DNA from: Bacillus sp. AFS037270
GTDB taxonomy: Bacteria; Bacillota; Bacilli; Bacillales_B; DSM-18226
Reading direction: 5' to 3'
Length of the DNA stretch: 23,398 nucleotides
NCBI RefSeq assembly: GCF_002585305.1
Contig: NZ_NUNF01000073.1
Location: forward strand, 1-23,398
Part shown: piece after piece, positions 501 through 22,234 of the stretch
How the letters are laid out: the number at the start of each line of letters is the position of its first letter
Position numbering within the stretch: the first letter of the stretch is position 1
Made by a program: the position numbers and the translations under genes
Notes under the pieces: generated by a model
The model's database searches: none
What the model saw: only the letters and a program-made list of their open reading frames with translations
Told to the model about the DNA's origin: nothing

Positions 501-503
501 TTG

Positions 504-3403: not shown

Positions 3404-3484
3404 GATCTTCACCCCCATTTCTTTTTTATATCACAAATTTAATACGAGCGTTAATATAATTATATATATTTTTAAAAAAACAAG

Positions 3485-4261: not shown

Positions 4262-4285
4262 AACCAATTCCGCTCCTTTATTTTG

Positions 4286-4321
4286 AAAAATAGCCCTTAA
4301 TAGTCATGCTATTTAAGGGCT
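4286..4321 (-). terminator. hairpin between paaJ and the second hydratase (weak terminator or attenuator)
   Basis: AGCCCTTAA (4292-4300) pairs perfectly with TTAAGGGCT (4313-4321), with three further pairs inside across one bulge. On the minus strand the stem is followed by ATTTTTC. The short T run suggests partial termination, so part of the transcripts may end after paaJ. Confidence 0.6.
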
Positions 4322-4328
4322 TTTACGT

Positions 4329-6403: not shown

Positions 6404-6430
6404 CTATCTCTCCTTTACCTGATTAAAGAA

Positions 6431-6462
6431 GTACGAATGAGACCGTGAAGTCTCATTCGTAC
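6431..6462 (-). other. perfect 13-bp hairpin inside the paa operon
   Basis: GTACGAATGAGAC (6431-6443) and GTCTCATTCGTAC (6450-6462) are exact reverse complements around a 6-nt loop, in the ALDH-paaH gap. On the minus strand it is followed by TTCTTTAATC, a poor T tract. It could be a partial terminator, an RNase barrier or a processing site that sets the ratio of upstream to downstream gene products. Confidence 0.75.
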
Positions 6463-6472
6463 GTGTAGGATA

Positions 6473-7984
6473 TTAAACACCTAATGGATTTAATGGACGA
6501 CTTCCAAAGTAAGAAATAATGCTCTTTGTTTCGGTATAAAGATCAAGTGTTTCAATGCAAAGTTCACGGCCGAAACCAGATTGTTTATAACCGCCAAATG
6601 GTGTACCAGGGAATGCAGAGAATGGGCAGTTCACCATCACAATGCCTGCTTCGATTTGCTTCGCCACACGGGTTGCACGGGCACCATCCTTTGACCAAAC
6701 AGCTGAACCTAGACCGAATTCTGTATCATTGGCAAGCATAATCGCTTCTTTTTCATCCTTAAATTTCATAACAACGACAACAGGGCCAAAGATTTCTTCT
6801 TTTACAACGGTCATGTTATGGTCAACATTCGCGATGACAGTAGGCTCATACCAGAATCCGCCTTCATAGCCTTCAACTTTAGCTGGCTTACCACCGGCTA
6901 AAATCTCTGCTCCCTCTTCAATCGCTGATTTTACATAACCATCGATAACATCTAATTGTCCTTGGTCAATGATTGCACCAACATGTGTGCCTTTATCAAA
7001 TGGATTCGCAAGGACTAACTTCTTAGTTTTTTCAACAAATTTAGTCACGAATTCATCATAAATATCTTCATGTACATACAAACGAGAACGGGCTTCACAG
7101 GATTGTCCTGAATTGTAGAAGATACCGAAAAGGGATCCATCAACGGCAGCATCAATATCCGCATCTTCAAACACGAGATTAGGAGACTTTCCGCCTAATT
7201 CAAGAGTGACACGCTTTAATGTTTCGGATGCTTTCGCCATAATATCTTTTCCGATTGGCGTAGAACCAGTGAAAGCCACTTTATTTACTTTTGGATGTTC
7301 AACTAGGTAATTTCCAACCTCTGAACCTGATCCAGGAACAATGTTTACTACCCCGGCAGGAACACCTGCTTCTAAGCAGATTTCACCAAGAATAATCGCA
7401 GTAAGAGGGGTTAAGCTTGCTGGTTTTACAACAACAGAACAGCCAACCGCAATTGCTGGAGCAACTTTCCATGCAGCCATCATCAATGGATAGTTCCAAG
7501 GAATGATTTGTGCACAAACCCCAACAGGCTCTTTTTCTGTGAAATTATGAAACTGGCCTGGCATATTGTTCACTACACCGCGATGGCCAACAATGGCAGC
7601 CGCATAAAATTCAAAATCCTCAATAGCTTGTGATACTTGGCCTTGAGCTGCAGCCAATGATTTACCAGTATCCAAAATCTCTAATTCTACAATCTCATTA
7701 AAACGGGAACGCATAATTGCAGCAATTTTGTTCAAAACTTGTGAACGGCGGTTAATTGGGTATTTGCGCCATTTTCCATGATCAAATGCTTGACGGGCAG
7801 CCTGTACCGCTTTTTCTGTATCTTCTTTAGAAGCCTTTGCCACTTCTGCTAGAAGCTCACCAGTAGCAGGATTATAGGTTTTTATCGTTTGACCGGTTGA
7901 GCTTTCTACTTTTTCACCGTTTATAATTAAATGATAATAATCTCTTTTTAGTGAAACTGCTTCGATAACTTGTTGTGTAGACAT
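6473..7984 (-). CDS. aldehyde dehydrogenase of the paa operon (PaaZ-ALDH-like or phenylacetaldehyde dehydrogenase)
   Basis: A 503-aa NAD(P)-dependent aldehyde dehydrogenase of the class 1/2/9 fold. Asn164 (IIPWNYP), Lys187 (VVVKPAS), Glu262 (LELGGKSPN) and the nucleophile Cys296 (NSGQSC) are all present, so it should be active. Two roles fit. It may oxidise the semialdehyde formed by ring opening, as the ALDH half of PaaZ does. Or it may turn phenylacetaldehyde into phenylacetate, as FeaB does. Its position between paaG and paaH favours the first. It lacks the C-terminal MaoC-like hydrolase domain of fused PaaZ proteins (about 680 aa). AGAGGAGG precedes the ATG; the gap to paaG is 15 nt. Confidence 0.85.
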   Translation of the reverse strand: MSTQQVIEAVSLKRDYYHLIINGEKVESSTGQTIKTYNPATGELLAEVAKASKEDTEKAVQAARQAFDHGKWRKYPINRRSQVLNKIAAIMRSRFNEIVELEILDTGKSLAAAQGQVSQAIEDFEFYAAAIVGHRGVVNNMPGQFHNFTEKEPVGVCAQIIPWNYPLMMAAWKVAPAIAVGCSVVVKPASLTPLTAIILGEICLEAGVPAGVVNIVPGSGSEVGNYLVEHPKVNKVAFTGSTPIGKDIMAKASETLKRVTLELGGKSPNLVFEDADIDAAVDGSLFGIFYNSGQSCEARSRLYVHEDIYDEFVTKFVEKTKKLVLANPFDKGTHVGAIIDQGQLDVIDGYVKSAIEEGAEILAGGKPAKVEGYEGGFWYEPTVIANVDHNMTVVKEEIFGPVVVVMKFKDEKEAIMLANDTEFGLGSAVWSKDGARATRVAKQIEAGIVMVNCPFSAFPGTPFGGYKQSGFGRELCIETLDLYTETKSIISYFGSRPLNPLGV

Positions 7985-7999
7985 CTATTTATCCTCCTC

Positions 8000-8773
8000 T
8001 TATTTCCCGATAAAGTTTGGTTTTCTTTTTTCCATAAAGGCTTGGACACCTTCACGGTGGTCTTTCGTTAAGCCGGCGATTCTTTGGCCTTGTGCCTCTT
8101 CTTCCAAATAGTCAGTAAAGGATTGTTCAGCCGTAGCTTTAATCGTACGCTTAATTAATCCAACGGCTTTTGTTGGCAAGGCCGCAATTCGCTCCGCAAA
8201 TTGATTTACTTCAGCGTCCCAATTATCAGAAGAAACCACCTTAGTCGCCAGCCCCAAGACATGCGCTTGGTCGGCAGTTATTTTTTCACCTAAGATCGAT
8301 ATTTCTAATGCTTTTGCTTCACCAACTAATCTAGTAAGAAAATAACTATTCCCTGAATCAGGGATTAAACCAATGTGGATAAAAGCATTTATAAAGCTGG
8401 CACGGTCTGATAAAAGGCGAAAATCACACGCGAGAGCAAGACTAAAGCCTGCACCGGCAGCAATCCCGTTGACAGCTGCAATAATTGGCTTCTCACATTG
8501 ATAAATTTGCTTGATCATCGGGCCGTATTTCTCCCTTAACACTTGGCCATGATCCATATTTTCATCCACTTCCGACAAATCCTGGCCAGAGCAAAAACCG
8601 CGTCCCTCACCGGTAATGACGATGCAGCGGACCTCTTCAGAAGAGGAAGCAGCTTTAATCGCTTTAGTTATTTCCTTATTCATTCGGGCCACGAACGCAT
8701 TTAATGTATTTGGCCTATTTAACGTAATCCGAGCTACACCGTTTTCTACTGAATAGAAAATCGTTTCGTACAT
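8000..8773 (-). CDS. paaG: 1,2-epoxyphenylacetyl-CoA isomerase, PaaG
   Basis: A 257-aa crotonase that resembles PaaG rather than a hydratase. The first hydratase glutamate is missing (AAGAGFSLAL instead of GGGFE), while an Asp is present at about 139 in GLIPDSGNS, matching the catalytic aspartate of E. coli PaaG. The C-terminal QRIAGLTKDHREGVQAFMEKR also follows the PaaG pattern. PaaG converts ring-1,2-epoxyphenylacetyl-CoA into the seven-membered oxepin-CoA and shifts double bonds in later intermediates. The start is the ATG at 8773 with GGGAG about 8 nt upstream. Starting further upstream would run into the preceding gene, whose stop lies 4 nt away. Confidence 0.9.
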   Translation of the reverse strand: MYETIFYSVENGVARITLNRPNTLNAFVARMNKEITKAIKAASSSEEVRCIVITGEGRGFCSGQDLSEVDENMDHGQVLREKYGPMIKQIYQCEKPIIAAVNGIAAGAGFSLALACDFRLLSDRASFINAFIHIGLIPDSGNSYFLTRLVGEAKALEISILGEKITADQAHVLGLATKVVSSDNWDAEVNQFAERIAALPTKAVGLIKRTIKATAEQSFTDYLEEEAQGQRIAGLTKDHREGVQAFMEKRKPNFIGK

Positions 8774-8777
8774 ATGG

Positions 8778-9554
8778 TTATCTCCCTTTAAATTCCGGTT
8801 TCCGCTTTTCAATAAAAGCGTTCATACCTTCTTTTTGATCCTCGGATGCAAACAATAAATAGAAATTTTTTCTTTCATATTGCATTCCTTCATATAATGG
8901 ATAATCGACTGCCTTATTGACCGAATCTTTAATTAAACGAATCGAAAGCGGCGCCTGTCTTGCGATTTGTTTAGCTGTCTTCATTGCTTCTTCCATTAAT
9001 AATTCAGGTGAAACGACTCGATTAATCAGACCGTATTGGAGGGCACTCTCTGTTGTAATTCTCGTGCCGTTCCATAACCATTCCAATGCTTTCGTTCTGC
9101 CGACAATTTTTGCTAGACGCTGGGTACCACCAGCTCCGGGCATAACACCAAGGGTCACTTCCGGGAAAGAAAATTCTGTACCGCTGGCCGCAATTAATAG
9201 ATCACAGCTCAGTGCCAACTCAAATCCCCCGCCAAAAACAAATCCTTTTACGGCACCAATAATTGGCTTTTTGATTAACGTTAGTCGGTCCCAGTCAGCA
9301 AATTGATTTAATAGCTCCAGTCGAACTGGATTATCTCCTGCCATTTCATCAATATCTGCTCCTGCTGAAAATGCACGCCCTTTACCTGTGACCACGATGG
9401 CCCGAACTTCTTCATCCCGATCAAAAGCTTCCAATGCATCAACAATTTCACGAACCATCGTTCGATTCAACGCATTATATTGAGCTGGTCTGTTTAGTTC
9501 AATCAGAGCTACACCATCTTGTTGTGAAGCTTCAATACATTCGTACGCTTTCAT
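8778..9554 (-). CDS. paaF: enoyl-CoA hydratase, PaaF-like
   Basis: A 258-aa crotonase with both hydratase glutamates, at about 112 (FGGGFE) and 132 (FPEVTLGVMPGAGGTQRL), plus the SAGADI oxyanion loop. In the pathway PaaF hydrates 2,3-dehydroadipyl-CoA to 3-hydroxyadipyl-CoA. The PaaF label comes from the operon position next to paaG; the protein motifs alone say only 2-enoyl-CoA hydratase. The ATG overlaps the stop codon of the EthD-like gene by one base (TAATG), indicating coupled translation. Confidence 0.82.
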   Translation of the reverse strand: MKAYECIEASQQDGVALIELNRPAQYNALNRTMVREIVDALEAFDRDEEVRAIVVTGKGRAFSAGADIDEMAGDNPVRLELLNQFADWDRLTLIKKPIIGAVKGFVFGGGFELALSCDLLIAASGTEFSFPEVTLGVMPGAGGTQRLAKIVGRTKALEWLWNGTRITTESALQYGLINRVVSPELLMEEAMKTAKQIARQAPLSIRLIKDSVNKAVDYPLYEGMQYERKNFYLLFASEDQKEGMNAFIEKRKPEFKGR

Positions 9555-9856
9555 TAATCGTCTTCCCCAATGACCAAGGTTACGAGCTTGCCGGCAAATT
9601 TCATTAAGTCTTTTCCTGAGGCTTTTCCTTCCTCCGAACGTAAGCCCTTTTGTAAATCCTCATGGCTGTCATAGCGCATTTCACACATTAAATAATATGG
9701 AGGTTCTCCTCCCATTGGTGTTCCAGTAAACCTTGTCACCTTGATATCACGCAGGCCTGGAATTTTTTCCGTAATCGGTACGTGTACGTTATTGTAATGT
9801 TCATCAAATGCTGCCTTGTCTTCTGGTTGTTTATATAATGCAATTAGTTTTGCCAT
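9554..9856 (-). CDS. EthD-family small protein
   Basis: A 100-aa dimeric alpha/beta-barrel protein of the EthD family. The N-terminal strand MAKLIALYKQPEDKAAFDEHY followed by the HVPITEKIPGLRD helix is the family pattern, with a MCEMRYDS strand and a C-terminal LVTLVIGED strand. EthD proteins are short ferredoxin-like-fold proteins found in ring-cleavage and oxygenase clusters; their reaction is mostly unknown. Here it lies between paaD and paaF, sharing one base with the next gene, so it is firmly part of the operon. It may assist an unstable intermediate such as the epoxide or oxepin, but that is inference. Confidence 0.82.
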   Translation of the reverse strand: MAKLIALYKQPEDKAAFDEHYNNVHVPITEKIPGLRDIKVTRFTGTPMGGEPPYYLMCEMRYDSHEDLQKGLRSEEGKASGKDLMKFAGKLVTLVIGEDD

Positions 9857-9883
9857 AATCGTTTCTCCTCACATTCTCTTTAT

Positions 9884-10384
9884 TTACATTAAAGTTGATA
9901 TCGGTTTCATTGCTTCAAAAGGGTTTTTACAACTTTTACAATACAAAATACTTCTGCAAGCTGTTGGTCCAAAGATATTGTCCATGGTCACATAGGTGGA
10001 ACCGCAATACGGGCAGTCAACATGCCACGATCCGTCACTGTCCATTAATCGAGGTGGAGGAGCAATTCCAAATGCCTTTAACCCTTGTCTCCCTTTTTCA
10101 GATATACGGTCTGACGTCCAGGGCGGGTGGTTGATAAATTCTACCTCAACCTTTTGTACTTCCTCTATGACCTTAACTGCCTTTTCGATATTATTCTTTA
10201 TAATGCCAAGAGCCGGGCAGCCTAAAAAGGTCGGCAGGATTTTAATCTCAACTACACCGTTTTCGGCCATTACTTCCTCTACCATACCCAGGTCGATAAT
10301 ACTCACTGTATCGATTTCAGGATCTTTTACTTCATCTAGTACTTCTAATACCTGCTTTTTCAGTGAAATTACAGACATTTGCAT
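9884..10384 (-). CDS. paaD: phenylacetyl-CoA epoxidase maturation factor PaaD
   Basis: A 166-aa protein with an N-terminal MIP18/DUF59 domain (DEVKDPEIDTVSIIDLGMV, then the FLGCPAL motif with its cysteine) and a C-terminal zinc ribbon made of CPYCG and CKSCK, typical for bacterial PaaD. PaaD is linked to iron-sulfur or metal-centre assembly for the epoxidase system. The ATG at 10384 is preferred because AGAGG is 7 nt upstream; a GTG at 10390 overlaps that box, and another ATG lies at 10378. It follows paaC by 26 nt. If PaaD serves the 2Fe-2S reductase PaaE, its presence without paaE is notable. Confidence 0.9.
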   Translation of the reverse strand: MQMSVISLKKQVLEVLDEVKDPEIDTVSIIDLGMVEEVMAENGVVEIKILPTFLGCPALGIIKNNIEKAVKVIEEVQKVEVEFINHPPWTSDRISEKGRQGLKAFGIAPPPRLMDSDGSWHVDCPYCGSTYVTMDNIFGPTACRSILYCKSCKNPFEAMKPISTLM

Positions 10385-10410
10385 GATCACACCTCTTTTC
10401 TATATGTACA

Positions 10411-11223
10411 TTACCAAGTTGCAGCAGTATCAATTCGATAGACTTCTGAAAGTGTCTCAATCGCCGACACTAAATCTTCTGTATGTTCAAAATTTCGGCC
10501 ATTTCTTTCTCTATTGACCGGAATTTCTGGAACAGTTAAACCTATCGATTGGAAAACAGGCTCTAAATGTTGTTTCCATCGTTGGATAAGGACATCCTCT
10601 TTTTCAATTAATCCACCTGCGATAAATTTTTCCCCATCCGTTCCGAATGAGAAAACATCCGCAAAATCTTTCATGACTTGTTCAATCGCAGTTTGCATTT
10701 TTTGTTTTGCTTCTTCTGTTGAACTTAAAAGCTGAACAAACCAAGTTTTCCAGTGGAGTAAATGGTAATACAGTTCCATATTTACCTTGATTGCAACTTT
10801 TGCCAGCGGCTCATAGGAGCTGTTTTTCAAAGAGTCAATCTTTATTTTCTTCGCTGCGGTGTAAAAATAATTCCGAACGACGGCGTAGGCCCAATCATAT
10901 TTAGGGACTTCCATGTAATAGCCCTCACCATTAGGTCTCTCTACTAAAATACTATTCCTTCTTTCATTAGCAGGTCGCAGGTGGGCTAATGCATCTGCAT
11001 TTCCGATCCCGATTTCTTCTAATAATTGATAAAACATTGTGGCATGGCCCATACTGTCTTGGCTGATGGAGGAAGAAGCAACATCCTCCTCTATATGCGG
11101 TGCTAATCCAAGCCATTCAGACCCCCTGTAGGAATAAAAGAAGTCATCGTCTGCAAGCTGAAATAATAAATTGACTACTGCATCCTTTAATTCAGGAGTT
11201 ATCGTTAAGTTTTGTTCAGTCAT
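10411..11223 (-). CDS. paaC: phenylacetyl-CoA epoxidase structural subunit PaaC
   Basis: A 270-aa ferritin-like subunit. PaaC pairs with the catalytic PaaA and supports its fold. Recognisable stretches are DDDFFYSYRGSEWLG near the N-terminus, the EEDVASSSISQDSMGHA helix (PaaC keeps the helical scaffold but is not the catalytic diiron subunit) and YDWAYAVVRNYFYTAA. The start is placed at the ATG at 11223 because AGGAGGT lies 8 nt upstream; an upstream extension in frame would lie inside paaB. The gene overlaps paaB by 8 nt. Confidence 0.92.
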   Translation of the reverse strand: MTEQNLTITPELKDAVVNLLFQLADDDFFYSYRGSEWLGLAPHIEEDVASSSISQDSMGHATMFYQLLEEIGIGNADALAHLRPANERRNSILVERPNGEGYYMEVPKYDWAYAVVRNYFYTAAKKIKIDSLKNSSYEPLAKVAIKVNMELYYHLLHWKTWFVQLLSSTEEAKQKMQTAIEQVMKDFADVFSFGTDGEKFIAGGLIEKEDVLIQRWKQHLEPVFQSIGLTVPEIPVNRERNGRNFEHTEDLVSAIETLSEVYRIDTAATW

Positions 11224-11569
11224 TTTTGTTACCTCCTGCCCAAGAAAGGATTTCTTTTTCATCGAGCATTTGTTGTTCATAATGCCGCCATTTTTTCTTT
11301 AAGTAGCCATAGCCTTTCGTTGTACGGTAATCCTTATTATCTAATCGCTGCAAAGTAACCTTTTCTTCCTTTGATAGTCCGCGAATATGTTCACGCTTCA
11401 CTATCCATATATCTGCAACCGGATCCCGGCGCATAAAGTTTTCTTGAGCCATTACCATCGCCATTTCAGCATTTGGTGCCAACAAACTAAACTGGTGCTG
11501 AAAGGGTGAAGAAGGTGTTCGTTTACTGAAGACTTCAAATTCCTGATAGAATGTTTTCTTTTGCTCCAT
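11216..11569 (-). CDS. paaB: phenylacetyl-CoA epoxidase subunit PaaB
   Basis: A 117-aa subunit of the multicomponent epoxidase. The PaaB pattern is seen in the FEVFSKRTPSSPFQHQFSLLA start, the AEMAMVMAQENFMRRDPVADIWIVKREHI core and a lysine-rich tail. PaaB bridges PaaAC heterodimers. It is somewhat longer than the ~95 aa of the proteobacterial protein because of a C-terminal extension. It lies 18 nt after paaA and overlaps paaC by 8 nt, so A, B and C should be made together. Confidence 0.92.
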   Translation of the reverse strand: MEQKKTFYQEFEVFSKRTPSSPFQHQFSLLAPNAEMAMVMAQENFMRRDPVADIWIVKREHIRGLSKEEKVTLQRLDNKDYRTTKGYGYLKKKWRHYEQQMLDEKEILSWAGGNKND

Positions 11570-11587
11570 TTTTCCCTTCCCCTTTCA

Positions 11588-12544
11588 TTAATTAACTGCC
11601 GCACTTAAGGCATCGCGCACCCATGCGTTCGTTTCATAAGATACTCTCCGTAAATTCAATCGTGCCTGTGAGCGCGGGCCATTGTTTCTGATAATTTGTT
11701 TAAATTTATTCCAATCAGGCTGTTGGTAAACCCAGAGCTGCTGCTCTTCGTCAAAATGAAGAGTTGGGTCTGGAATCGTTAAACCTAATGATAAAATTCG
11801 AGGAATGTACTTGAAAAAAAAGCTTTGCCGAAGTTCTTCGTTTGTGCTTGTCCGAATTTTATATTTAATTGTTACGTCCTGTTTACTTGTGCCTGTTGTC
11901 GTACTGCTTGCCGGTCCAAAAAACATCAGAAGCGCTTCCCACCAGTCATTTAATGACTCCTGAATCATTTGTGTTTGTTCCTCTGTTCCTTCTGCAAGAG
12001 CCATGATAATCGCTTCCCCATGCTGTGCGTGGAACACTTCCTCCGCGCAAATGCGGTGCAATGCTCTTGCATATGGACCGTAAGAAGCACCCAGCATGTT
12101 TGTTTGGGTGATAATGGCAGCACCATCAACCAGCCAGCCAATCATTCCAGCGTCAGCCCAGGTGTTTGTTGCCATATGGAAGACATTATGAAACTTTAAA
12201 TCTCCATTAAATAGATCCTGCATTAGATCGCCGCGATCTTTTCCATATGGTTTTAATAAATCCTCTGCAACACGAAGGAGCAGTTGTCCATGCCCCATTT
12301 CATCCTGAACTTTAGCCATAATTCCCAATTTCCTTCTTAGTGAAGGTGCTTTCGGAACCCATTCCTTTTCAGGCAGTGCCCCCATAATTTCACTGATTCC
12401 GTGCTGTGATATTAATTTTATAAGAGCGACCCGATATTCTTCCGGCATCCAGTCATCTGCTTCAATTTTATCTCCTGCTTCAATTCGAGCAACAAATTTT
12501 TCTAATTCTTCCTGTTCAGTAAAATCTTTTTCCAGAGTACTCAC
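11588..12544 (-). CDS. paaA: phenylacetyl-CoA epoxidase catalytic subunit PaaA
   Basis: A 318-aa catalytic diiron subunit that epoxidises the ring of phenylacetyl-CoA with O2. The carboxylate-histidine motifs are DEMGH (about 81-85) and EEVFH (168-172), the latter followed by AQHGE. Length and order are as in other paaABC systems. Translation starts at GTG 12544, with AAAGGTGG about 7 nt upstream; the ATG one base out of frame stops at once. It is the first gene of the long operon, directly behind a strong promoter with an overlapping operator. Confidence 0.95.
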   Translation of the reverse strand: MSTLEKDFTEQEELEKFVARIEAGDKIEADDWMPEEYRVALIKLISQHGISEIMGALPEKEWVPKAPSLRRKLGIMAKVQDEMGHGQLLLRVAEDLLKPYGKDRGDLMQDLFNGDLKFHNVFHMATNTWADAGMIGWLVDGAAIITQTNMLGASYGPYARALHRICAEEVFHAQHGEAIIMALAEGTEEQTQMIQESLNDWWEALLMFFGPASSTTTGTSKQDVTIKYKIRTSTNEELRQSFFFKYIPRILSLGLTIPDPTLHFDEEQQLWVYQQPDWNKFKQIIRNNGPRSQARLNLRRVSYETNAWVRDALSAAVN

Positions 12545-14419: not shown

Positions 14420-14869
14420 ATGACTACTAATCTAGAAGATCACGCTTTTCATGAAAGACATTATGAACAGATTGTAAACAAAATGAAAGATGAACCCTAT
14501 GGCCGATTCCTTGGTATGAAGCTGATTAAACTAGGACCTGGGATAGCAGCAGCTGAATTAACCCCGGATGAAAACATGTTAAATGCCCATGGAACCGTCC
14601 ATGGAGGAGTTATCTTCTCTCTTGCAGATTATGTGTTTGCTGCAGCGAGCAACTCATATGGTAAAACGGCTGTCGGCATACAAACCAGCGTTAATTTTAT
14701 GTCTGCAGGAAAACCGGGGGAAACACTTTTGGCCACTGCAGAGGAAATAAAGAAAAACCATCGCCTCGGCTGGTATAACATTCATGTATATAGCAACAAA
14801 GAATTGATCGCTACTATGGAAGCAATGGTTTATCGAAAAAATCATTCCTTTGTTGAAGCAGAAGATTAA
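14420..14869 (+). CDS. paaI: phenylacetyl-CoA thioesterase PaaI
   Basis: A 149-aa hotdog thioesterase. The PaaI signature is complete: NAHGTVHGGVIFSLADYVFAAA with the catalytic Asp at about 70, followed by a VNFMSAGKPGETL strand and turn. PaaI hydrolyses phenylacetyl-CoA and hydroxylated or stalled derivatives, rescuing CoA when the pathway jams. AGAGAGGG lies 5 nt before the ATG. It is divergent from paaK, with its own promoter and the shared operator, so it should be induced together with the pathway. Confidence 0.88.
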   Translation: MTTNLEDHAFHERHYEQIVNKMKDEPYGRFLGMKLIKLGPGIAAAELTPDENMLNAHGTVHGGVIFSLADYVFAAASNSYGKTAVGIQTSVNFMSAGKPGETLLATAEEIKKNHRLGWYNIHVYSNKELIATMEAMVYRKNHSFVEAED

Positions 14870-14957: not shown

Positions 14958-16334
14958 CTATACTATTTTATTTTCTTTTACTATCATGGTATCTTTTTCA
15001 TCCACATTTTTAAACTTAAAGATGGAAATCAAAAATAGCACCGCTAAAACAACAAGACAAGTAATAATACTCACTCGATTCTGTTTATCAAATAAAAATA
15101 TTACTGATATGATGCTTAACGTAACGACAGTAATCCCAGTTACATAGGGGAAGCCCCACAATTTAAAGCTTGGTTCTTTAGGATAAGAATTGCGAAGTTT
15201 TAAATGTGCTAGACAAATACCAACCCAGACCAACGATACGACAAAACCCGGAACCGCCATTAATAAAGTAAATACCTTTTCCTGCGCAACAAAGGCAATC
15301 ATCGAGCCGCCGACTAATACCACAGCTGTTAATATTAAACTGTATAATGGAACACCCTTTTTTGATACATAAGAGAAAGACTTTGGAGCTTCCCCTTCAA
15401 CCGCAAGGGAATGCAACATCCGTGTACAACCATATATACCGGAGTTGGCTGCAGATAAGACAGCTGTAATTAAAATAAAGTTCAAAAGGTGTGCTGCCCC
15501 CTTCAGGCCGGCCATGGATAACACCTGGACAAACGGACTCACATTACTGCTGGCAATCTCATTCCAAGGAATTAAACCGCAGATTACTAGAATTGGCAGC
15601 GTGTAAAACAAAATAATTCTCCAAACAAAGCTTTTAATCACTTTAGGTAAAATCCGTTCTGCATCTTTTACTTCTGTTACTGTTAAGCCTATTAATTCAG
15701 AACCTCCATAAGAAAACATAACAATTAACAGCGCTGAAAAGATTGACATCCATCCTTTCGGGAAAAAACCGCCATGCTCTGTAAGATTATGCAGATAGTT
15801 GGATTGATTGCTCGGGATGACTCCAAATAAAATACCTGCACCTAATATGATAAATACGATAATCATAGTGATTTTGATGCCTGCAAACCAAAATTCAAAT
15901 TCCCCATAATTTTTAACATTCATCATGTTAATTCCGATAACTAAAGCGGCACAGCCTAAACTTAATTCCCAAAGTGGAATGGATGGAAACCAGTATTGCA
16001 GGAAACTCCCTGCCACGACAATCTCGATGACACATACGGCCAGCCACATGAAACAATACATCCAGCCTATAACAAAGGAAGCGCGCTTACCAAAGGCTTT
16101 CTGAACAAATCCTTTCATATTTGTGTTCGGATAGACGATAGCCATTTCTGCTATAGCTCCCATAACAACAAGAAGCAATAGTCCGGCGAACACATATGTG
16201 AAGATAACTCCTGGTCCTGCTAATGATACGGTTTCTGCACTGCCTTTAAAAATCCCTGTTCCTATTGCTCCTCCCATTGCCATCAAACTTATATGCCGCG
16301 GCAACAACTTCTTTTGTAATGATGCATCATTCAT
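14958..16334 (-). CDS. APC-superfamily amino acid permease, probably for aromatic amino acids
   Basis: A 458-aa inner-membrane transporter with about 12 hydrophobic segments. The AAT-family start is clear: LLPRHISLMAMGGAIGTGIFKGSAETVSLAGPG, giving TM1 with its unwound GAIGTG region. Further family marks are FSYGGSELIGLTVTEVKDAE (about 225-245) and SAANSGIYGCTRMLHSLA (about 300-317). Relatives carry phenylalanine, tyrosine, GABA or proline in symport with protons. Phenylalanine is proposed here because the gene follows the phenylalanine dehydrogenase operon. GGAGGT lies 7 nt before the ATG. A cre site sits about 120 nt upstream. Confidence 0.85.
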   Translation of the reverse strand: MNDASLQKKLLPRHISLMAMGGAIGTGIFKGSAETVSLAGPGVIFTYVFAGLLLLVVMGAIAEMAIVYPNTNMKGFVQKAFGKRASFVIGWMYCFMWLAVCVIEIVVAGSFLQYWFPSIPLWELSLGCAALVIGINMMNVKNYGEFEFWFAGIKITMIIVFIILGAGILFGVIPSNQSNYLHNLTEHGGFFPKGWMSIFSALLIVMFSYGGSELIGLTVTEVKDAERILPKVIKSFVWRIILFYTLPILVICGLIPWNEIASSNVSPFVQVLSMAGLKGAAHLLNFILITAVLSAANSGIYGCTRMLHSLAVEGEAPKSFSYVSKKGVPLYSLILTAVVLVGGSMIAFVAQEKVFTLLMAVPGFVVSLVWVGICLAHLKLRNSYPKEPSFKLWGFPYVTGITVVTLSIISVIFLFDKQNRVSIITCLVVLAVLFLISIFKFKNVDEKDTMIVKENKIV

Positions 16335-16466: not shown

Positions 16467-16571
16467 CTTTTTGCTGCTTTTTTTGGGGGATTTTTTTTCC
16501 CCCCAAGGCTCTTGTGAGGTCCGGTTTATTTTCGGGAGATCTGTTTCCACATCTTATCTACTTTTTGAGAT

Positions 16572-16637: not shown

Positions 16638-16713
16638 TATTTGTTGTCCTATTGCCCCTGCGCTTGTCAAGACTTACTAGTTATATCTTGGGGTTTAGTG
16701 GATATTAAGTATA

Positions 16714-18000
16714 CTATGCAAGTTCTATTGGCCACAACTTAGGGTTTTCAATCAATTGTTTAAAACGGTTCGTAAAGGCTACTGCTGTGGCACCGTCTGC
16801 AACGCGGTGGTCAAACGCCATCGACATGGTCATGATCGAGCGAATCGCAATCTCATCGTTTTCCATAACAACAGGCATTTTTTTCGTCTTATGAAAGGCA
16901 ATTAACCCTGTTTCCGGATGATTAATAATCGGAGTTGCTCCGATGCTTCCTAATGGACCGACGTTACTGATGGTAAACGTACCGCCTTTCATATCCATCG
17001 GTGTCAGTTTGTTCTCTTGCGCTTTTTTGGTTAACTCTTTAAGTTTGTCATGAATTTGGCGAACTGTTAATTGATCCGCATGATGAATGACAGGGACAAT
17101 TAAACCATCTTCTGTATCAGTAGCAATCCCAATGTTATATTCTTTCTCTAAACGAATTACTTCATTTTCTTCATCAAGCTTGGCATTGAAAACAGGGAAT
17201 TGTTTTAATGCTACTGCAATCGCTTTAATAAAGAAGGCGACAGCCGAAACATTGATATTCATCTCTTTTAATCCGTTTCTATAGGCGAGCAGCTCAGTTA
17301 AATCTGCCTCTTCGAAATGTGTCACGTGAGGAATTGTATAAAGTGACTGGGTCATTTTCTTTGCAATTTGCTTCCGACGGCCTCTAAACGGAATCACTTC
17401 TGCTTTTGTTTCATTTATGTTCCGAATTTCCTGCTTTTGAATCTCTTGTTTAGGTTCTGTTTTTGCTTTAGTCACTTCTGCGGAAGCCTCTTTTATTTCC
17501 TTAGGAGATTGGATCGCATCACGTTGTTTAACAAAGTTGTATATATCTTCCACAGTGATGCGCCCATTTGTGCCAGTTCCTGTAATTTCGTTAATATCTA
17601 CACGAAACTCCCGTGCAATTTTTCTTGTGTAAGGCGCAGCTATGATGAACTTTTTTTCTCCCTTTTGCTCGGTCACAGCTGTTTGCTGCGGTTGTGATTG
17701 TAACGCCTCTGTATTTTTAGAAGCTACTTCTGCCGGTTTCTTATCTGTTTCTACCGCTTTTGCTCCTTCTGTTTCCAGTACAAGAAGAGTAGTACCAACA
17801 GAGACAGTATTACCATGATCCACAACAATTTCCTTTACTTTCCCTGAAGCTGGGGAAGGAAGCTCTGCCACCATTTTATCTGTTTGTACCTCTAAAAGTG
17901 GCTGGTCTACCTTGACCGAATCCCCCACTTTGACGAAATAGTGAATAACTTCTCCCTCTGTCATCCCTTCACCAATGTCATGAAGTTTTACTTCAACCAA
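16714..18000 (-). CDS. 2-oxo acid dehydrogenase E2 (dihydrolipoyl acyltransferase)
   Basis: A 428-aa E2 core protein. In order: one lipoyl domain (1-78, lipoyl Lys42 in QTDKMVAELPSP), a charged linker, a peripheral-subunit-binding domain (about 118-157, APYTRKIAREFRVDI and GTGTNGRITVEDI), a second linker, and a catalytic domain ending in DHRVADG with the active His at about 398. It transfers the acyl group from lipoate to CoA. The single lipoyl domain with DKM rather than DKA resembles branched-chain or aromatic 2-oxo acid complexes. The start is TTG at 18000, with AGGAGGGG upstream and no ATG alternative. It lies 12 nt after E1-beta. The E3 partner is not in the window. Confidence 0.88.
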   Translation of the reverse strand: MVEVKLHDIGEGMTEGEVIHYFVKVGDSVKVDQPLLEVQTDKMVAELPSPASGKVKEIVVDHGNTVSVGTTLLVLETEGAKAVETDKKPAEVASKNTEALQSQPQQTAVTEQKGEKKFIIAAPYTRKIAREFRVDINEITGTGTNGRITVEDIYNFVKQRDAIQSPKEIKEASAEVTKAKTEPKQEIQKQEIRNINETKAEVIPFRGRRKQIAKKMTQSLYTIPHVTHFEEADLTELLAYRNGLKEMNINVSAVAFFIKAIAVALKQFPVFNAKLDEENEVIRLEKEYNIGIATDTEDGLIVPVIHHADQLTVRQIHDKLKELTKKAQENKLTPMDMKGGTFTISNVGPLGSIGATPIINHPETGLIAFHKTKKMPVVMENDEIAIRSIMTMSMAFDHRVADGATAVAFTNRFKQLIENPKLWPIELA

Positions 18001-18012
18001 TGTTTTCCCCTC

Positions 18013-19035
18013 CTAAAAATGCACAACTTTTTCGATTGCGTTGAATATCCGCTTTGGTGTAGGTAAATAATGTTCTTCCAGCGCAAATAATGGTACTGGT
18101 ACATCAAAACCTGTCACGCGCTCAATCGGAGATTTTATATACAAAAATGATGTATCATTTATAATGGAAACAATATCATTACCCACTCCGCCTGTTGCAT
18201 GGGCTTCATGAACAATAACCGCACGTCCTGTTTTTTGAACAGATTCTGCAATAATGTCCTTATCAAGTGGATAAAGGGTCCGCAAATCAATGACATCACA
18301 GGTAATGCCGTATTTTTCGGCCTGCTCCGCTGCTTTCATGGCTACCGGTACCATCGCACCCCATGCAAAAACAGAAACGTCATTTCCTTCTTTGAGCCTT
18401 TTCCCTTTTCCGATTTCAACTATATACTTTCCTTCCGGAACCTCTTCACGGTTAGCACGGTAGATTCTCATGGACTCTAAAAATAAGACGGGATCCGGAT
18501 CTTCGATAGCTGCGATGATCAGACCCTTTGCATCATATGCAGATGAAGGGCAAACAACTTTTATTCCGGGCATATGTGTAAACAATGCTTCCACACTGTC
18601 TGAATGGACTTCCGGAGCACGGATGCCTGCACCGTATGGAGCACGGATGACCATTGGAACTGTATAGCTACCCATCGTACGCATACGAATGCGTGATACA
18701 TGTGTCATGATCTGCTCATACGCCGGATAAATAAAACCAAAAAACTGCATTTCCACTACGGGTTTGAATCCATTGACAGCCATTCCGATAGAGGTTCCGA
18801 TAATTCCTGCTTCGCTCAGTGGCGTATCAATAACGCGATCTTCCCCAAATTCTTCTTGCAAACCCTCGGTAGCACGGAATACACCACCGTTTTTACCGAT
18901 ATCTTCACCTAGCAAAAGGACCCGCTCGTCCTCTTTTAAAATCGTGCGCAACCCATCTGTTACGGCTTGAACGAGTGTTAGCTCGTTAGTTTTCGTAGTT
19001 TGGTCTTCTACCGGTCTATCAACACTTAAGATCAT
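18013..19035 (-). CDS. 2-oxo acid dehydrogenase E1 component, beta subunit
   Basis: A 340-aa transketolase-type beta subunit that forms the ThDP site together with E1-alpha. Visible marks are LLGEDIGKNGGVFRATEGL (about 41-59), DTPLSEAGIIG with its conserved Glu (about 75), the MQFFGFIYPAYEQI segment and IVHEAHATGGVGNDI in the C-terminal domain. The ATG at 19035 shares one base with the E1-alpha stop (TGATG) and has GGGAGG 8 nt upstream. Motifs fit pyruvate or branched-chain complexes equally, so substrate is inferred from the phenylalanine dehydrogenase gene at the head of the operon. Confidence 0.88.
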   Translation of the reverse strand: MILSVDRPVEDQTTKTNELTLVQAVTDGLRTILKEDERVLLLGEDIGKNGGVFRATEGLQEEFGEDRVIDTPLSEAGIIGTSIGMAVNGFKPVVEMQFFGFIYPAYEQIMTHVSRIRMRTMGSYTVPMVIRAPYGAGIRAPEVHSDSVEALFTHMPGIKVVCPSSAYDAKGLIIAAIEDPDPVLFLESMRIYRANREEVPEGKYIVEIGKGKRLKEGNDVSVFAWGAMVPVAMKAAEQAEKYGITCDVIDLRTLYPLDKDIIAESVQKTGRAVIVHEAHATGGVGNDIVSIINDTSFLYIKSPIERVTGFDVPVPLFALEEHYLPTPKRIFNAIEKVVHF

Positions 19036-20102
19036 CAAGCTTCCCTCCCGATCAATTGGAAATATTCTTCTTTTTGTTTCGCAATCGTCCAAGTCGGCTT
19101 TTCAAATACATTATCGAATAAATCATTGATATTTGGTTTTGGATAGCTTTCCATATCTTTTACCGCTTGTTCTACTTCGGTTTGTGTTTCTTCATTGACC
19201 TTCATCACCCAATCTTCATCCCAGAAGTTGTTTTCTTTCATAAAGCGTTCTACACGAAGAAGAGGATCTTGATTTTCTCGAATTGTGTCACTTTGGGACT
19301 GATCCCGATATTTAGACGGGTCATCTGCCGTTGTATGGGCACCATATCTCCATGTCATTGCTTCAATTAAAGTTGGGCCTTCTCCTTTACGGGCACGGTC
19401 AAACCCTTCTATCGTTTGGAAATACACAGCAAAAATATCGTTTCCATCGACACGGACACCGGGCATATCATAAGCGAGTGCTTTTTGGGCAATCGTTTTG
19501 GAATTCATTTGTTTTTTTATCGGCACTGAAATCGCAAAGCCGTTATTTTGATTAAAGAAGATAACTGGAGCTTTAAACACACTGGCAAAATTCAATCCTT
19601 CATGAAAATCGCCCTCTGAAGTGGCACCGTCTCCAAAATAGGCAATCGCTGCATTTTTCGTTCCTTTTCTTTTTTCAGCCATAGCAGCCCCTGCTGCATG
19701 CGGGATTTGTGTTGCTATGGGAACGGCTGGAGGGAAAATCTTTTTCCCTTCTTCAGGCACGCATCCCTCCACACGCCCATTCCAATATAAATATGTACGG
19801 GCCATGCCGGCACCAAACGTTAACGTGGCACCATGGTCACGATAGGTAGGGAATACCCAGTCATCTTTTTCAAGTGCCAGTGCACTTCCAACTTGAGAAG
19901 CTTCCTGACCCTCAAACGGAGCATACGTTCCAAGTCTTCCTTGACGCTGCAAACTAATGGCTTTTCGATCAAAGGTACGAATGCGAACTATATTATAGTA
20001 GAATTTTTTTACAAGATCTTCGGTTATTTTATCTTTGTAATCCTCATTTATTAATACGCCGTTTTCATCGACAATTTGAAATATAGGAAATTCCGTTGAC
20101 AT
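19035..20102 (-). CDS. 2-oxo acid dehydrogenase E1 component, alpha subunit
   Basis: A 355-aa ThDP-dependent subunit that decarboxylates the 2-oxo acid. The ThDP motif GDGATSEGDFHEG (from about 157) ends in NN at about 186-187. The YRDHG loop (about 87-91) and RYGAHTTADDP segment are also typical. It resembles Bacillus PdhA closely in layout (LQRQGRLGTYAPFEGQEASQ), so automatic annotation would call it pyruvate dehydrogenase. The position 30 nt after phenylalanine dehydrogenase instead points to phenylpyruvate as substrate, giving phenylacetyl-CoA. GAGGTGA precedes the ATG. Confidence 0.88.
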   Translation of the reverse strand: MSTEFPIFQIVDENGVLINEDYKDKITEDLVKKFYYNIVRIRTFDRKAISLQRQGRLGTYAPFEGQEASQVGSALALEKDDWVFPTYRDHGATLTFGAGMARTYLYWNGRVEGCVPEEGKKIFPPAVPIATQIPHAAGAAMAEKRKGTKNAAIAYFGDGATSEGDFHEGLNFASVFKAPVIFFNQNNGFAISVPIKKQMNSKTIAQKALAYDMPGVRVDGNDIFAVYFQTIEGFDRARKGEGPTLIEAMTWRYGAHTTADDPSKYRDQSQSDTIRENQDPLLRVERFMKENNFWDEDWVMKVNEETQTEVEQAVKDMESYPKPNINDLFDNVFEKPTWTIAKQKEEYFQLIGREA

Positions 20103-20132
20103 GTCATCACCTCATAAACAGAAATTAATTAA

Positions 20133-21272
20133 TTAATTACGAATATCCCATTTAGGACGTTTTGTATGAGTGAAAAAGCTATTTTGCTTTTTTCGGTCTT
20201 CTATTCGTTTTTCACATAGCCGGTTTGCCGCTTGAATGGTCGTGATATCATCCAACTCTGCCTGTCTGTACACTTCCAATAACGATGTGTAAATGGATCT
20301 TGTTTTCGATAATACACGCTCTTTATTGTAGCCGTATAGTTCATCAGCTACTTGAATTAAACCGCCAGCATTTACAATGTAATCTGGAGCATATAAAATT
20401 CCTTTTTGTTTCAGTACTTCTCCGTGTTTCTCCGTAAGAAGCTGATTGTTAGCCGAACCAGCCACTGCTTTTACTTTTAACAGATCAATCGTTTCATCGT
20501 TAATAATTCCGCCAAAAGCACAAGGAACAAATACATCTGCTTCTGCAGCATACACATCATTTCCGCTTACTGCACGAGCAATACTTCCTAATTGTTTTGC
20601 ATGTTCTTGAATGGCTTTTACGGCTTCTTCATTAATATCACTTACATATAAATCTGCGCCTGATTCAAGCAATTGTTCGGCTACTTTGTACCCTACTTTT
20701 CCAAGACCTTGGATTGTGAAGGTTTTGCCGGAAAGATCATCTGTGCCAAAAACGACTTTATTCGTTGCTTTTAAACCGTAAATGACTCCAATCGCCGTCG
20801 GAATGGACGAATCCCCACCGCCACCGTATGCTTCAGGAATTCCTACAATACAATTTGTCTCTTTTGATGCATGGATAAAGTCATCCATTGATGTACCCAT
20901 ATCTGTTCCTGTGTAAAAACGGCCGTTTAAAGAATCAACAAACTGGCCGAGAGCTCTAAACATAGCCGGTGTTTTATCCGTTGCTGGATCACCGAAGATT
21001 ACCGCTTTTCCTCCACCGAAATCGACATCGGCAGCAGCGCATTTATATGTCATCCCTTTAGATAAACGCAATACATCTTCCAAGGCCTCATCCATTGTAC
21101 GATACGGGCGCATACGGCAGCCCCCCAATGCAGGTCCGAGTGTTGTATTATGAATGGCGATAATAGCTTTCAACCCTGTTGTCGGGTCATTGCAAAAAAC
21201 AATTTGCTCATGTTCATGCATTTTTTCAATAACTGATTCAGTTGTTTGTACAGAATGTTCTAACACGTTCAT
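20133..21272 (-). CDS. phenylalanine dehydrogenase
   Basis: A 379-aa NAD-dependent amino acid dehydrogenase that deaminates L-phenylalanine to phenylpyruvate and ammonia. It has the family residues Lys77 (GMTYK), Lys89 (FGGGK), Asp124 (YTGTDMGT) and the NAD loop QGLGKVG (188-194). It differs from leucine dehydrogenase where phenylalanine dehydrogenases do: [20 protein letters not shown] in place of the ETDYVTG...FGSSG type, and a C-terminal KWDIRN tail like that of the Bacillus badius enzyme as I remember it. The Asn at about 140 corresponds to the specificity residue Asn145 of the Lysinibacillus sphaericus enzyme. GGAGGT lies 7 nt before the ATG. It heads the operon with E1-alpha, E1-beta and E2, and is divergent from an Lrp-type regulator. 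Confidence 0.92.
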
Positions 21273-21297
21273 TTAAATTACCTCCATTAGCACTGTG

Positions 21298-21303
21298 ATT
21301 ATA
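21298..21303 (-). promoter_or_regulatory. -10 box of the phenylalanine dehydrogenase operon
   Basis: A perfect TATAAT on the minus strand about 26 nt before the start codon. Seventeen nt upstream there is only a T run, not a -35 box. Such a promoter often needs an activator, and the divergent Lrp/AsnC protein is the obvious candidate. Confidence 0.5.
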
Positions 21304-21748: not shown

Positions 21749-22207
21749 ATGGACCAATTAGATATTCGTCTGCTTGAACTTCTTCAAATGGACGGACGGA
21801 TGACTTTAAGTGAATTATCGAAGAAATTATCCCTAAGTCGTCCAAGCATTACGGAGCGTTTAAAACGGCTTCAAGATAGGGGAATTATTGAAGGATTCAG
21901 TGCCCGAGTATCCCTTAAAGAAATCGGACGGGATGTAATTGTTTATATTCAAGTAAGTGAACTCAAGGTATTTTCTTATGCTGAATTTGAGAAGTGGATT
22001 ATCGATGAACCTGACATCGTTGAATGTCATCGGTTAACCGGCTCTGTTAGCTATTTACTTAAAGCTGCCGTTACAGGGATGGATCATTTGAGCAGACTTA
22101 TTGACCGGCTAACCCCTTACGGAAATGTAAATACATCAATCGTTTTATCATCACCCGTCTCGTTTCGCTGCATCACTCCAAATGACGATAAGGAAGAAAA
22201 AAAGTAA
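21749..22207 (+). CDS. Lrp/AsnC-family transcriptional regulator
   Basis: A 152-aa regulator. The N-terminal winged helix is MDQLDIRLLELLQMDGRMTLSELSKKLSLSRPSITERLKRLQDRGII (about 1-47) and the RAM ligand domain runs from about 60 to 140, with an ECHRLTGSVSYLLKAAV strand-loop. Lrp/AsnC proteins sense amino acids and act on neighbouring catabolic or transport genes. As a divergent neighbour of phenylalanine dehydrogenase, phenylalanine or phenylpyruvate is a likely effector (inference). AAGGGGA precedes the ATG by 8 nt. A strong terminator follows. Confidence 0.9.
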   Translation: MDQLDIRLLELLQMDGRMTLSELSKKLSLSRPSITERLKRLQDRGIIEGFSARVSLKEIGRDVIVYIQVSELKVFSYAEFEKWIIDEPDIVECHRLTGSVSYLLKAAVTGMDHLSRLIDRLTPYGNVNTSIVLSSPVSFRCITPNDDKEEKK

Positions 22208-22234
22208 ACCTGGTGCAATGGGTATGAAAAATGG

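What the first reader, a model, noticed from the sequence alone, without database searches (positions are those of the whole stretch)
16714..21272. Phenylalanine dehydrogenase in one operon with a dedicated 2-oxo acid dehydrogenase: a proposed phenylpyruvate-to-phenylacetyl-CoA route
The order PheDH, E1-alpha, E1-beta, E2 on one strand (gaps of 30, -1 and 12 nt), some 4 kb from a full paa pathway, suggests that phenylpyruvate is decarboxylated oxidatively and leaves directly as phenylacetyl-CoA. This would bypass phenylacetaldehyde, free phenylacetate and the ATP cost of PaaK. The E1/E2 proteins would normally be annotated as pyruvate or branched-chain dehydrogenase. Gene identities are seen; the substrate is inferred from context. 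I do not recall a well-characterised phenylpyruvate dehydrogenase complex of this type in Bacillaceae.
Basis: partly seen in the sequence, partly recalled or inferred. Interest (0 to 1): 0.8.

Follow-up and report, generated by a model that had tools for sequence, protein, structure and literature searches.

The report
Likely phenylpyruvate dehydrogenase operon in Bacillaceae
Next to its genes for breaking down phenylacetic acid, this bacterium carries an enzyme complex that databases call pyruvate dehydrogenase but that very probably turns the keto form of phenylalanine straight into the activated compound that pathway needs; relatives seem to use the same complex for tyrosine.

Summary
In detail: PheDH, E1-alpha, E1-beta and E2 lie on the minus strand with gaps of 30, -1 and 12 nt, near paaK and paaABCD. 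The PheDH pocket matches a characterised PheDH at 12 of 12 residues. The E1-alpha clade is separate from PdhA, BkdA and AcoA; 8 of 8 related genomes have their own PdhA and BkdA. Of the 80 closest loci, 66 have PheDH directly upstream and 68 hold paa core genes; 57 add an E3. In 397 genomes of the order, E1 is in 156 of 167 with the ring epoxidase PaaA and 9 of 230 without; of 29 PaaA genomes lacking PaaK, 27 have E1. The nine E1 genomes without PaaA all have HpaD of the 4-hydroxyphenylacetate pathway within 16 kb of E1, against 0 of 20 controls. Best reading: a catabolic arylpyruvate dehydrogenase complex, delivering phenylacetyl-CoA here and probably 4-hydroxyphenylacetyl-CoA in hpa clusters. 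Nothing is assayed; the substrate is inferred. The only enzyme found named phenylpyruvate dehydrogenase for this reaction is PglB/PglC of pristinamycin biosynthesis.

The parts
20133..21272 (-). L-phenylalanine dehydrogenase (ELFV family, 379 aa)
   Evidence: Pfam ELFV domains; 12 of 12 pocket residues as in B. halodurans PheDH at the same numbers, whereas 7 of 7 bkd-linked relatives carry AEDV and Val (residues from PMC9728165)
19035..20102 (-). E1-alpha of the proposed arylpyruvate dehydrogenase (355 aa)
   Evidence: PF00676, 297.5 bits; 42-row clade 97/86 apart from PdhA/BkdA/AcoA; ThDP motif
18013..19035 (-). E1-beta (340 aa, ATG at 19035, overlaps the E1-alpha stop by 1 nt)
   Evidence: PF02779 + PF02780; nearest solved chain is E1-beta of the PDH complex, 3duf_B; start and gap
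16714..18000 (-). E2 acyltransferase (428 aa; one lipoyl domain, E3-binding domain, catalytic domain)
   Evidence: PF00364, PF02817, PF00198; QTDKM and DHRVADG motifs
14958..16334 (-). amino acid permease, possible uptake partner
   Evidence: PF00324; follows E2 in L001, L002, L004, L006 and is found in L003; no NCBIfam cut-off reached, substrate not told
21749..22207 (+). divergent Lrp/AsnC-type regulator
   Evidence: PF01037 and PF13404; also divergent upstream of PheDH in L002, L004, L006
12744..14117 (-). PaaK phenylacetate-CoA ligase (the step that the route would bypass)
   Evidence: TIGR02155, 650.0 bits against cut-off 646.3
14420..14869 (+). PaaI-like hotdog thioesterase
   Evidence: TIGR02286, 111.2 bits, just under cut-off 118.9
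9554..12544 (-). paaA, paaB, paaC, paaD and an EthD-family gene: phenylacetyl-CoA epoxidase, the proposed consumer of the product
   Evidence: PaaA TIGR02156 458.7, PaaC TIGR02158 237.1, PaaD TIGR02159 175.1 bits, all over cut-off; paaB named by position and recall, not scanned; 94% identical to an L006 gene in the same place
2522..9554 (-). paaF/paaG/ALDH/paaH/thiolase/enoyl-CoA-hydratase-like genes and PaaX: lower phenylacetate pathway and its repressor
   Evidence: NCBIfam hits, several below curated cut-offs; PaaX TIGR02277 324.7 bits over cut-off 264.55

Best explanation
The operon encodes a catabolic arylpyruvate (here phenylpyruvate) dehydrogenase route. PheDH deaminates L-Phe with NAD+ to phenylpyruvate. 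The ThDP enzyme E1-alpha/E1-beta decarboxylates it and passes the phenylacetyl group to the lipoyl arm of E2, and E2 hands it to CoA. E3 (in the operon of 57 of 80 relatives; probably shared from pdh or bkd in this lineage) reoxidises the arm with NAD+. Phenylacetyl-CoA enters the neighbouring PaaABCD ring epoxidase directly, without phenylacetaldehyde, free phenylacetate or the ATP spent by PaaK; PaaK then serves outside phenylacetate. Shown by sequence: gene identities, PheDH pocket, separate E1 lineage, conserved linkage, PaaK-less genomes. Inferred: substrate, product, E3 sharing, and regulation by the Lrp-type protein.
For: Intact tight operon with the catalytic motifs. PheDH pocket 12/12. 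PheDH directly upstream in 66 of 80 loci, paa core genes in 68 of 80, both in 59. E3-like gene in 57 of 80 loci, -1 to 2 nt after E2 in the 55 where the gap was computed. Order-wide: E1 in 156/167 PaaA+ against 9/230 PaaA- genomes; 27 of 29 PaaA+ PaaK- genomes have E1. In 57 E1 genomes: PaaA 57/57, full PaaK 37/57, IorA over cut-off 0/57; the PaaK state changes at least 7 times on their E1-alpha tree. Separate PdhA and BkdA in 8 of 8 relatives. Members of the same clade lie in 4-hydroxyphenylacetate clusters.
Against: No enzyme assay. NCBIfam files E1-alpha as pyruvate dehydrogenase, 472.7 bits over a cut-off of 411.35, and public names say pyruvate or 2-oxoisovalerate dehydrogenase. Exceptions: G177 has PaaA and PheDH but neither PaaK nor E1; G293 has PaaA but none of PaaK, E1 and PheDH; eleven PaaA+ genomes lack E1; ten genomes have PheDH without E1 or PaaA. 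At the stricter E1 cut-off 25, not 27, of the 29 PaaK-less genomes have E1. PaaK is kept in most genomes, this window included. A generic acyl-CoA ligase could replace PaaK; weak AMP-ligase-like hits exist. IorA-like proteins below cut-off occur in 22 of 57 genomes. Many genomes are drafts, so single absences are unsure. The p-values are not corrected for kinship.
Confidence: 0.85

Rival explanations
1. A broad branched-chain or general 2-oxo acid dehydrogenase that happens to lie beside PheDH and paa genes.
For: At several E1-alpha columns (128, 135, 156, 167, 193, 211, 221) the clade shares the bkd residue and not the pdh one. Enzymes of this type can tolerate several 2-oxo acids (recalled).
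Against: A separate BkdA exists in 8 of 8 genomes, in 7 of them read in an operon with a LeuDH-type gene. Those BkdA are 35-39% identical to the window E1-alpha and fall in another group. The lineage follows paa or hpa genes.
Confidence: 0.07
2. A second pyruvate (or acetoin) dehydrogenase, as annotated.
For: TIGR03181 over cut-off; best solved relatives of E1-alpha and E1-beta are PDH E1 chains, and of E2 PDH E2 chains.
Against: A separate PdhA exists in 8 of 8 genomes checked, 42% identical to the window E1-alpha in the three operons scored; 39 E1-alpha columns are fixed in the clade and differ from PdhA; a PDH would not be expected to track PaaA or HpaD.
Confidence: 0.03
3. The true substrate is mainly 4-hydroxyphenylpyruvate or indolepyruvate, with phenylpyruvate secondary.
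For: The same clade sits in hpa clusters; six loci have paa genes on one side and hpaG/hpaF-like genes on the other, five of them with hpaB-like genes; a TrpX-like binding protein, below its cut-off, follows E3 in L019.
Against: In the window and 66 of 80 relatives the upstream gene is PheDH with a Phe-type pocket, and the neighbouring consumer in 68 of 80 is the phenylacetyl-CoA pathway.
Confidence: 0.05

Closest known systems
PglB/PglC, phenylpyruvate dehydrogenase of L-phenylglycine biosynthesis in Streptomyces pristinaespiralis (PMC7089894 and PMC10685826, passages seen)
   Same: Pyruvate-dehydrogenase-like alpha and beta subunits proposed to turn phenylpyruvate into phenylacetyl-CoA
   Different: Antibiotic-precursor synthesis in an actinomycete; the pglA-E genes as listed include no PheDH, E2 or E3; sequence kinship to the window proteins was not tested
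Pyruvate dehydrogenase complex (PDB 1w85, 3duf; source organism G. stearothermophilus recalled)
   Same: Same E1-alpha/E1-beta/E2 architecture; best solved match of both E1 subunits, second-best of E2
   Different: Housekeeping PdhA fall in a separate group; 39 fixed E1-alpha columns differ from PdhA; other gene neighbourhood
[quoted passage not shown]
   Same: Amino acid dehydrogenase (LeuDH type) in the operon with E1/E2 and an E3-size gene
   Different: LeuDH-type gene has the AEDV/Val pocket; genes of ptb and buk size precede (names recalled); E1-alpha 35-39% identical
Indolepyruvate/arylpyruvate:ferredoxin oxidoreductase (proposed for phenylpyruvate in Desulfococcus multivorans, PMC5109826, passages seen)
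   Same: Arylpyruvate to arylacetyl-CoA
   Different: Ferredoxin-linked enzyme of anaerobes and of another family; no IorA over cut-off in 57 genomes
PheDH of Bacillus halodurans (PMC9728165, abstract and passages seen)
   Same: 1,140-bp gene, i.e. the same length, and the same 12 pocket residues
   Different: Studied as a biocatalyst; the passages seen give no operon or pathway role

Membership tests
2-oxo acid dehydrogenase multienzyme complex | E1 with ThDP-binding GDG...NN motif and E1-beta domains | tested here: met
2-oxo acid dehydrogenase multienzyme complex | E2 with lipoyl, E3-binding and catalytic domains, lipoyl lysine, DHRxxDG | tested here: met
2-oxo acid dehydrogenase multienzyme complex | A partner E3 (dihydrolipoyl dehydrogenase) | tested here: inconclusive
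   No E3 gene recognised in the window; an E3-like gene in 57 of 80 related loci, TIGR01350 over cut-off in L009 and just under (403.7 against 408.8) in L019; own genome not held
Pyruvate dehydrogenase (acetyl-transferring) | E1-alpha over the NCBIfam TIGR03181 cut-off | tested here: met
   472.7 against 411.35 bits; the cut-off does not keep this clade out
Pyruvate dehydrogenase (acetyl-transferring) | Falls with the housekeeping PdhA in a tree | tested here: not met
   Separate 42-row clade, support 97/86
Pyruvate dehydrogenase (acetyl-transferring) | Acts on pyruvate | not testable with these tools
   needs an enzyme assay
[quoted passage not shown] bkd gene neighbours | tested here: not met
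L-phenylalanine dehydrogenase | ELFV domains and PheDH-type pocket residues | tested here: met
L-phenylalanine dehydrogenase | NAD-dependent Phe deamination | not testable with these tools
   needs an enzyme assay
Phenylpyruvate dehydrogenase (PglB/PglC type) | Homology to PglB/PglC | not tested
   PglB/C sequences were not retrieved
Arylpyruvate:ferredoxin oxidoreductase | IorA-type family membership | tested here: not met
   the window genes are E1/E2; no IorA over cut-off in 57 relatives, weaker hits in 22
Phenylacetate (paa) catabolic cluster | paaA, paaC, paaD, paaK, paaX over curated cut-offs | tested here: met

The most novel reading that the evidence does not exclude
This is a member of an unrecognised family of catabolic arylpyruvate dehydrogenase complexes (NAD/lipoyl type) spread across the order that holds the Bacillaceae. 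One E1/E2(/E3) lineage channels the 2-oxo acids of both Phe (into paa, as CoA ester) and Tyr (into the 4-hydroxyphenylacetate/homoprotocatechuate pathway), replaces PaaK outright in some species, and is filed in databases as pyruvate or branched-chain dehydrogenase.
Probability: 0.7. Interest if true: 0.8.

Novelty: new variant of a known kind. Interest (0 to 1): 0.72.

Why it matters
It would give a complete, ATP-saving route for aerobic Phe breakdown through phenylacetyl-CoA and a physiological role for Bacillus PheDH, known mainly as biocatalysts (recalled). It would correct the name of a protein lineage found in 165 of 397 sampled genomes of the order. It makes a clear prediction: PaaK-less species should grow on Phe but not on phenylacetate. 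It would also supply an NAD-linked phenylacetyl-CoA-forming enzyme for biotechnology.

Tried and rejected
Housekeeping PDH or Bkd: rejected for the relatives from separate PdhA and BkdA copies and the tree. Plasmid origin: no match of 14958-22300 in 72,556 plasmid records by megablast. An RNA switch: only a tRNA at 23271-23344 reached Rfam cut-offs. Promoters and terminators: no more sites than in shuffles, 28 against a mean of 30.2 and 7 against 7.0. A shared regulator site upstream of PheDH: the intergenic regions of the window, L002, L004 and L006 show only a weakly conserved AT-rich stretch; not pursued. Mapping the E1 pocket onto solved coordinates was not possible; residues were compared by alignment only. 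One E1-alpha column (91, G against A) and two E1-beta columns separate paa-type from hpa-type rows; no claim is built on them. No structure prediction was run, because single-chain models would not show the pocket between E1-alpha and E1-beta.

Rows left out or counted twice: the tree used 68 rows (42 of the 80 loci L001-L080 were named for it, but six rows L101, L102, L104, L108-L110 were dropped as duplicates, and with them L003, L004, L006, L009, L013 and L023 where these were stored under those names). Searches covered 57 of the 80 genomes (50 loci and eight handles given; L024 is not held; 22 of the 80 were not submitted). The PheDH rows hold five second copies from overlapping loci and five rows chosen by hand; the E1-alpha rows also hold duplicates. 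In one search, 13 PheDH neighbours were missed because E1-alpha starts were called too far upstream; one search recounted with the tblastn match start, and its 450-nt cut left out L001 (458 nt). E2 'missing' includes L015, which has one, and L057, which has no E1-beta or E2 match in its short stretch. The twenty controls are the twenty genomes listed without a match in both. E-value cut-offs of the profile are my choice; with E1 at 1e-140 instead of 1e-120 the figures are 146/167 and 9/230.

Literature: ten searches, nine of them on the route itself and on PheDH residues; no paper that describes this operon was seen in the listings. Subscription journals are mostly not held, so absence from print is not shown.
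Full report
WHAT IS THERE. The window holds, on the minus strand, PheDH (20133-21272), E1-alpha (19035-20102), E1-beta (19035 down to 18013) and E2 (16714-18000), with gaps of 30, -1 and 12 nt and intact frames. An amino acid permease follows after 379 nt, then a plus-strand PaaI-like thioesterase, then paaK, paaABCD, an EthD-family gene and the lower phenylacetate genes down to PaaX. A divergent Lrp/AsnC-type regulator lies upstream. Catalytic motifs of E1 and E2 are present. The closest protein with a given name is 97% identical and from Neobacillus cucumis, so the window is probably a Neobacillus. Its own genome is not held, and no plasmid record matches the operon.

THE DEHYDROGENASE IS A PHE-TYPE ENZYME. 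Among solved structures leucine dehydrogenases score first, so overall similarity does not decide. PMC9728165 (abstract and passages seen) lists the pocket of the B. halodurans PheDH: L49 G50 G51, M74, K77, G122 T123 D124 M125, N275, L305, V308. The window protein has all twelve at the same numbers. All 80 PheDH rows compared (70 from 68 of the loci L001-L080, five second copies from overlapping loci, five chosen by hand) have GTDM, and 78 of 80 have Leu at 305; the 7 LeuDH-type rows from bkd operons read AEDV and Val.

THE E1/E2 IS NOT THE HOUSEKEEPING SET. In 8 genomes that carry the clade, every one has several other E1-type genes. By best match to operons read directly, 8 of 8 have a PdhA and 8 of 8 a BkdA of their own. 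Three pdh operons (E1-alpha of 371-374 aa, E1-beta, E2, E3-size gene), seven bkd operons with a LeuDH-type gene, and aco-like operons were read in the regions fetched; these labels rest on gene order, size and recall, not on named reference proteins. In a 68-row tree the window E1-alpha lies in a 42-row clade (97/86) apart from the pdh, bkd and aco groups, which sit on branches of 1.71, 2.16 and 2.68 changes per column. In an alignment of 112 rows, 39 columns are fixed (90% or more) in the clade and differ from PdhA. Yet NCBIfam TIGR03181 calls the protein pyruvate dehydrogenase, and among the 120 best of 7,724 hits every source name shown (the column is cut short) is pyruvate or 2-oxoisovalerate dehydrogenase.

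LINKAGE. Of these, 66 have PheDH directly upstream (median gap 28 nt), 68 have a paa core gene in the locus and 59 have both; seven have PheDH without a paa gene in the stretch held; nine have paa genes without PheDH inside the 450-nt cut, of which L001 has it at 458 nt and L023 about 3 kb away; five have neither. E2 follows at the expected place in 75 of 80. A dihydrolipoyl-dehydrogenase-like gene follows E2 in 57 of 80 and was not found in 23; NCBIfam names it lipoamide dehydrogenase in the two tested, L009 over cut-off and L019 just under. So in most of these relatives the operon ends E1a-E1b-E2-E3, a whole dedicated complex. L001-L004 and L006, the relatives at 80-88%, lack the E3 like the window; L001, L002, L004 and L006 have the permease there instead, and L003 has one too.

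CO-OCCURRENCE. In 397 genomes drawn from the order of G005 (the genome of L006), with equal set size in four searches, E1 (E <= 1e-120) is in 165, PaaA (1e-100) in 167, PheDH (1e-130) in 155 and PaaK (TIGR02155, 1e-140) in 139. E1 is in 156 of 167 PaaA+ and 9 of 230 PaaA- genomes; PheDH in 145 of 167 and 10 of 230; PaaK in 138 of 167 and 1 of 230. E1 is thus tied to the phenylacetyl-CoA epoxidase about as closely as PaaK is. Ten of the 165 E1 matches are borderline (1e-123 to 1e-133); without them the first figure is 146 of 167. Fisher p-values are below 1e-65 but take no account of kinship.

THE PAAK TEST. If E1/E2 makes phenylacetyl-CoA, PaaK should be dispensable for Phe. Of 57 E1 genomes all have PaaA, 37 have a full PaaK (582 bits or more) and 20 have none; among the 20, G046 (L050) keeps only a broken remnant and G026 a distant relative of 192.6 bits. 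No IorA reaches its cut-off in the 57; weaker hits occur in 22. On the E1-alpha tree of the 57 the PaaK state changes at least 7 times. In the order-wide set 29 PaaA+ genomes lack PaaK; 27 of them have E1 (25 at the stricter cut-off) and 25 have PheDH; G177 and G293 have no E1. The G177 locus shows paa genes, PheDH and parts of an ABC transporter, but no E1 in the 18 kb fetched. A non-orthologous ligase in PaaK-less genomes is not excluded, and drafts can lose genes.

THE TYROSINE SIDE. The nine order genomes with E1 but no PaaA also lack PheDH. All nine, and the five genomes of L044, L069, L071, L077 and L079, have HpaD (3,4-dihydroxyphenylacetate 2,3-dioxygenase) over cut-off; of 20 control genomes without E1 and PaaA none does (two weak hits). 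In all nine HpaD lies on the same contig as E1, 7.2 to 15.6 kb away (coordinates, distances). Neighbours were read in four of the nine: L134 has HisC-type aminotransferase, E1a, E1b, E2, NhaC-type antiporter, esterase-like gene, HpaG N and C parts; L135, L136 and L137 have similar aminotransferase, antiporter and hpa-like genes. L044 has E1a-E1b-E2 and an E3-like gene followed by HpaI-like, HpaE, HpaB, HpaD and a HpaC-like gene. L069 has HpaE, L071 HpaG and a HpaF-like gene, L075 a HpaI-like gene and HpaG with PheDH-E1-E2. In the tree these hpa-context rows sit at three places inside the window's clade (seven Halobacillus-type rows; L071 and L075 with L122; L044 on a long branch near the window), so the context changed more than once or some placements are unsure. 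Six loci (L019, L039, L042, L045, L048, L053) have paa genes upstream and hpaG/hpaF-like genes downstream, about 3 kb past E3 in L019, five of them with hpaB-like genes; all six genomes lack PaaK. In L009 a 4-hydroxyphenylpyruvate dioxygenase and a HisC-type aminotransferase follow E3. The shared theme is aromatic amino acid breakdown, which points to arylpyruvates as substrates of the lineage.

MECHANISM, SHOWN AND INFERRED. Shown: genes, motifs, linkage, co-occurrence. Inferred: L-Phe + NAD+ to phenylpyruvate (PheDH); oxidative decarboxylation to phenylacetyl-lipoyl-E2 (E1); transfer to CoA (E2); NADH by an E3 shared with other complexes in the window's lineage; product to PaaABCD. Compared with a route through free phenylacetate this saves the ATP of PaaK (pathway knowledge) and avoids phenylacetaldehyde. 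The Lrp-type protein as an aromatic amino acid sensor is a guess from position.

WHAT IS KNOWN. In the library searched, 'phenylpyruvate dehydrogenase' occurs in 4 papers (listing); one of them, PMC10685826, uses it for PglB/PglC (passage), and PMC7089894 describes PglB/C as a pyruvate-dehydrogenase-like complex forming phenylacetyl-CoA for phenylglycine (passages); the other three were not opened. PMC5109826 (passages) proposes an indolepyruvate:ferredoxin oxidoreductase for the same conversion in a sulfate reducer. PMC13285125 (search listing only) holds the term arylpyruvate oxidoreductase. The paa review PMC9493321 (passages) starts the pathway with PaaK. Ten searches brought up no title or abstract start that describes this operon; the library lacks most subscription journals.

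VERDICT. I rate it a new variant of a known kind: an ordinary 2-oxo acid dehydrogenase architecture with, very probably, an aryl substrate and a catabolic role that I did not find described for aerobic bacteria in the searches made.

Noticed in passing
window 1477-2430 (-): FabK/nitronate-monooxygenase-like protein (TIGR03151 313.7 bits, below cut-off 453.1) recurs beside PaaX and PheDH in most related loci; role in the pathway unknown.
   Followed up: no
window 9554-9856 (-): 100-aa EthD-family gene (TIGR02118) between paaD and paaF, found in many related paa clusters, while no PaaE reductase gene was recognised in the window.
   Followed up: no
L050 (genome G046): PaaK present only as a broken remnant (best piece 291.5 bits with one stop, further pieces behind it) in a genome that keeps PaaA, PheDH and the E1/E2 genes.
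   Followed up: partly
L126 (genome G001): An E1-alpha/E1-beta pair (53% and 61% identical) without an adjacent E2, with a divergent Lrp-type gene 69% like the window's.
   Followed up: no
L138 (genome G061): PheDH (71%), 4HBT thioesterase and Lrp (59%) near E1a (55%), E1b (61%), a pdhE2-like E2 and an E3: a related but different complex beside PheDH.
   Followed up: partly
L139, L140 and genomes G099, G107, G156, G182, G236, G282, G304, G324, G364, G365: PheDH without E1 clade or PaaA (neighbours of two seen); what becomes of phenylpyruvate there is open.
   Followed up: no
L010, L014: Records titled Chryseobacterium sp. ISL-80 and Pseudomonas sp. ISL-84 carry Bacillaceae-like operons; the record names look wrong or contaminated.
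   Followed up: no
L009:14856-17215: 4-hydroxyphenylpyruvate dioxygenase and a HisC-type aminotransferase directly behind the E3 of the operon: two Tyr routes may meet in one locus.
   Followed up: partly
window 501-776 (+): Short LuxR/GerE-type DNA-binding ORF at the end of the paa cluster.
   Followed up: no
window 23271-23344 (-): tRNA gene (Rfam RF00005, 64.5 bits).
   Followed up: no
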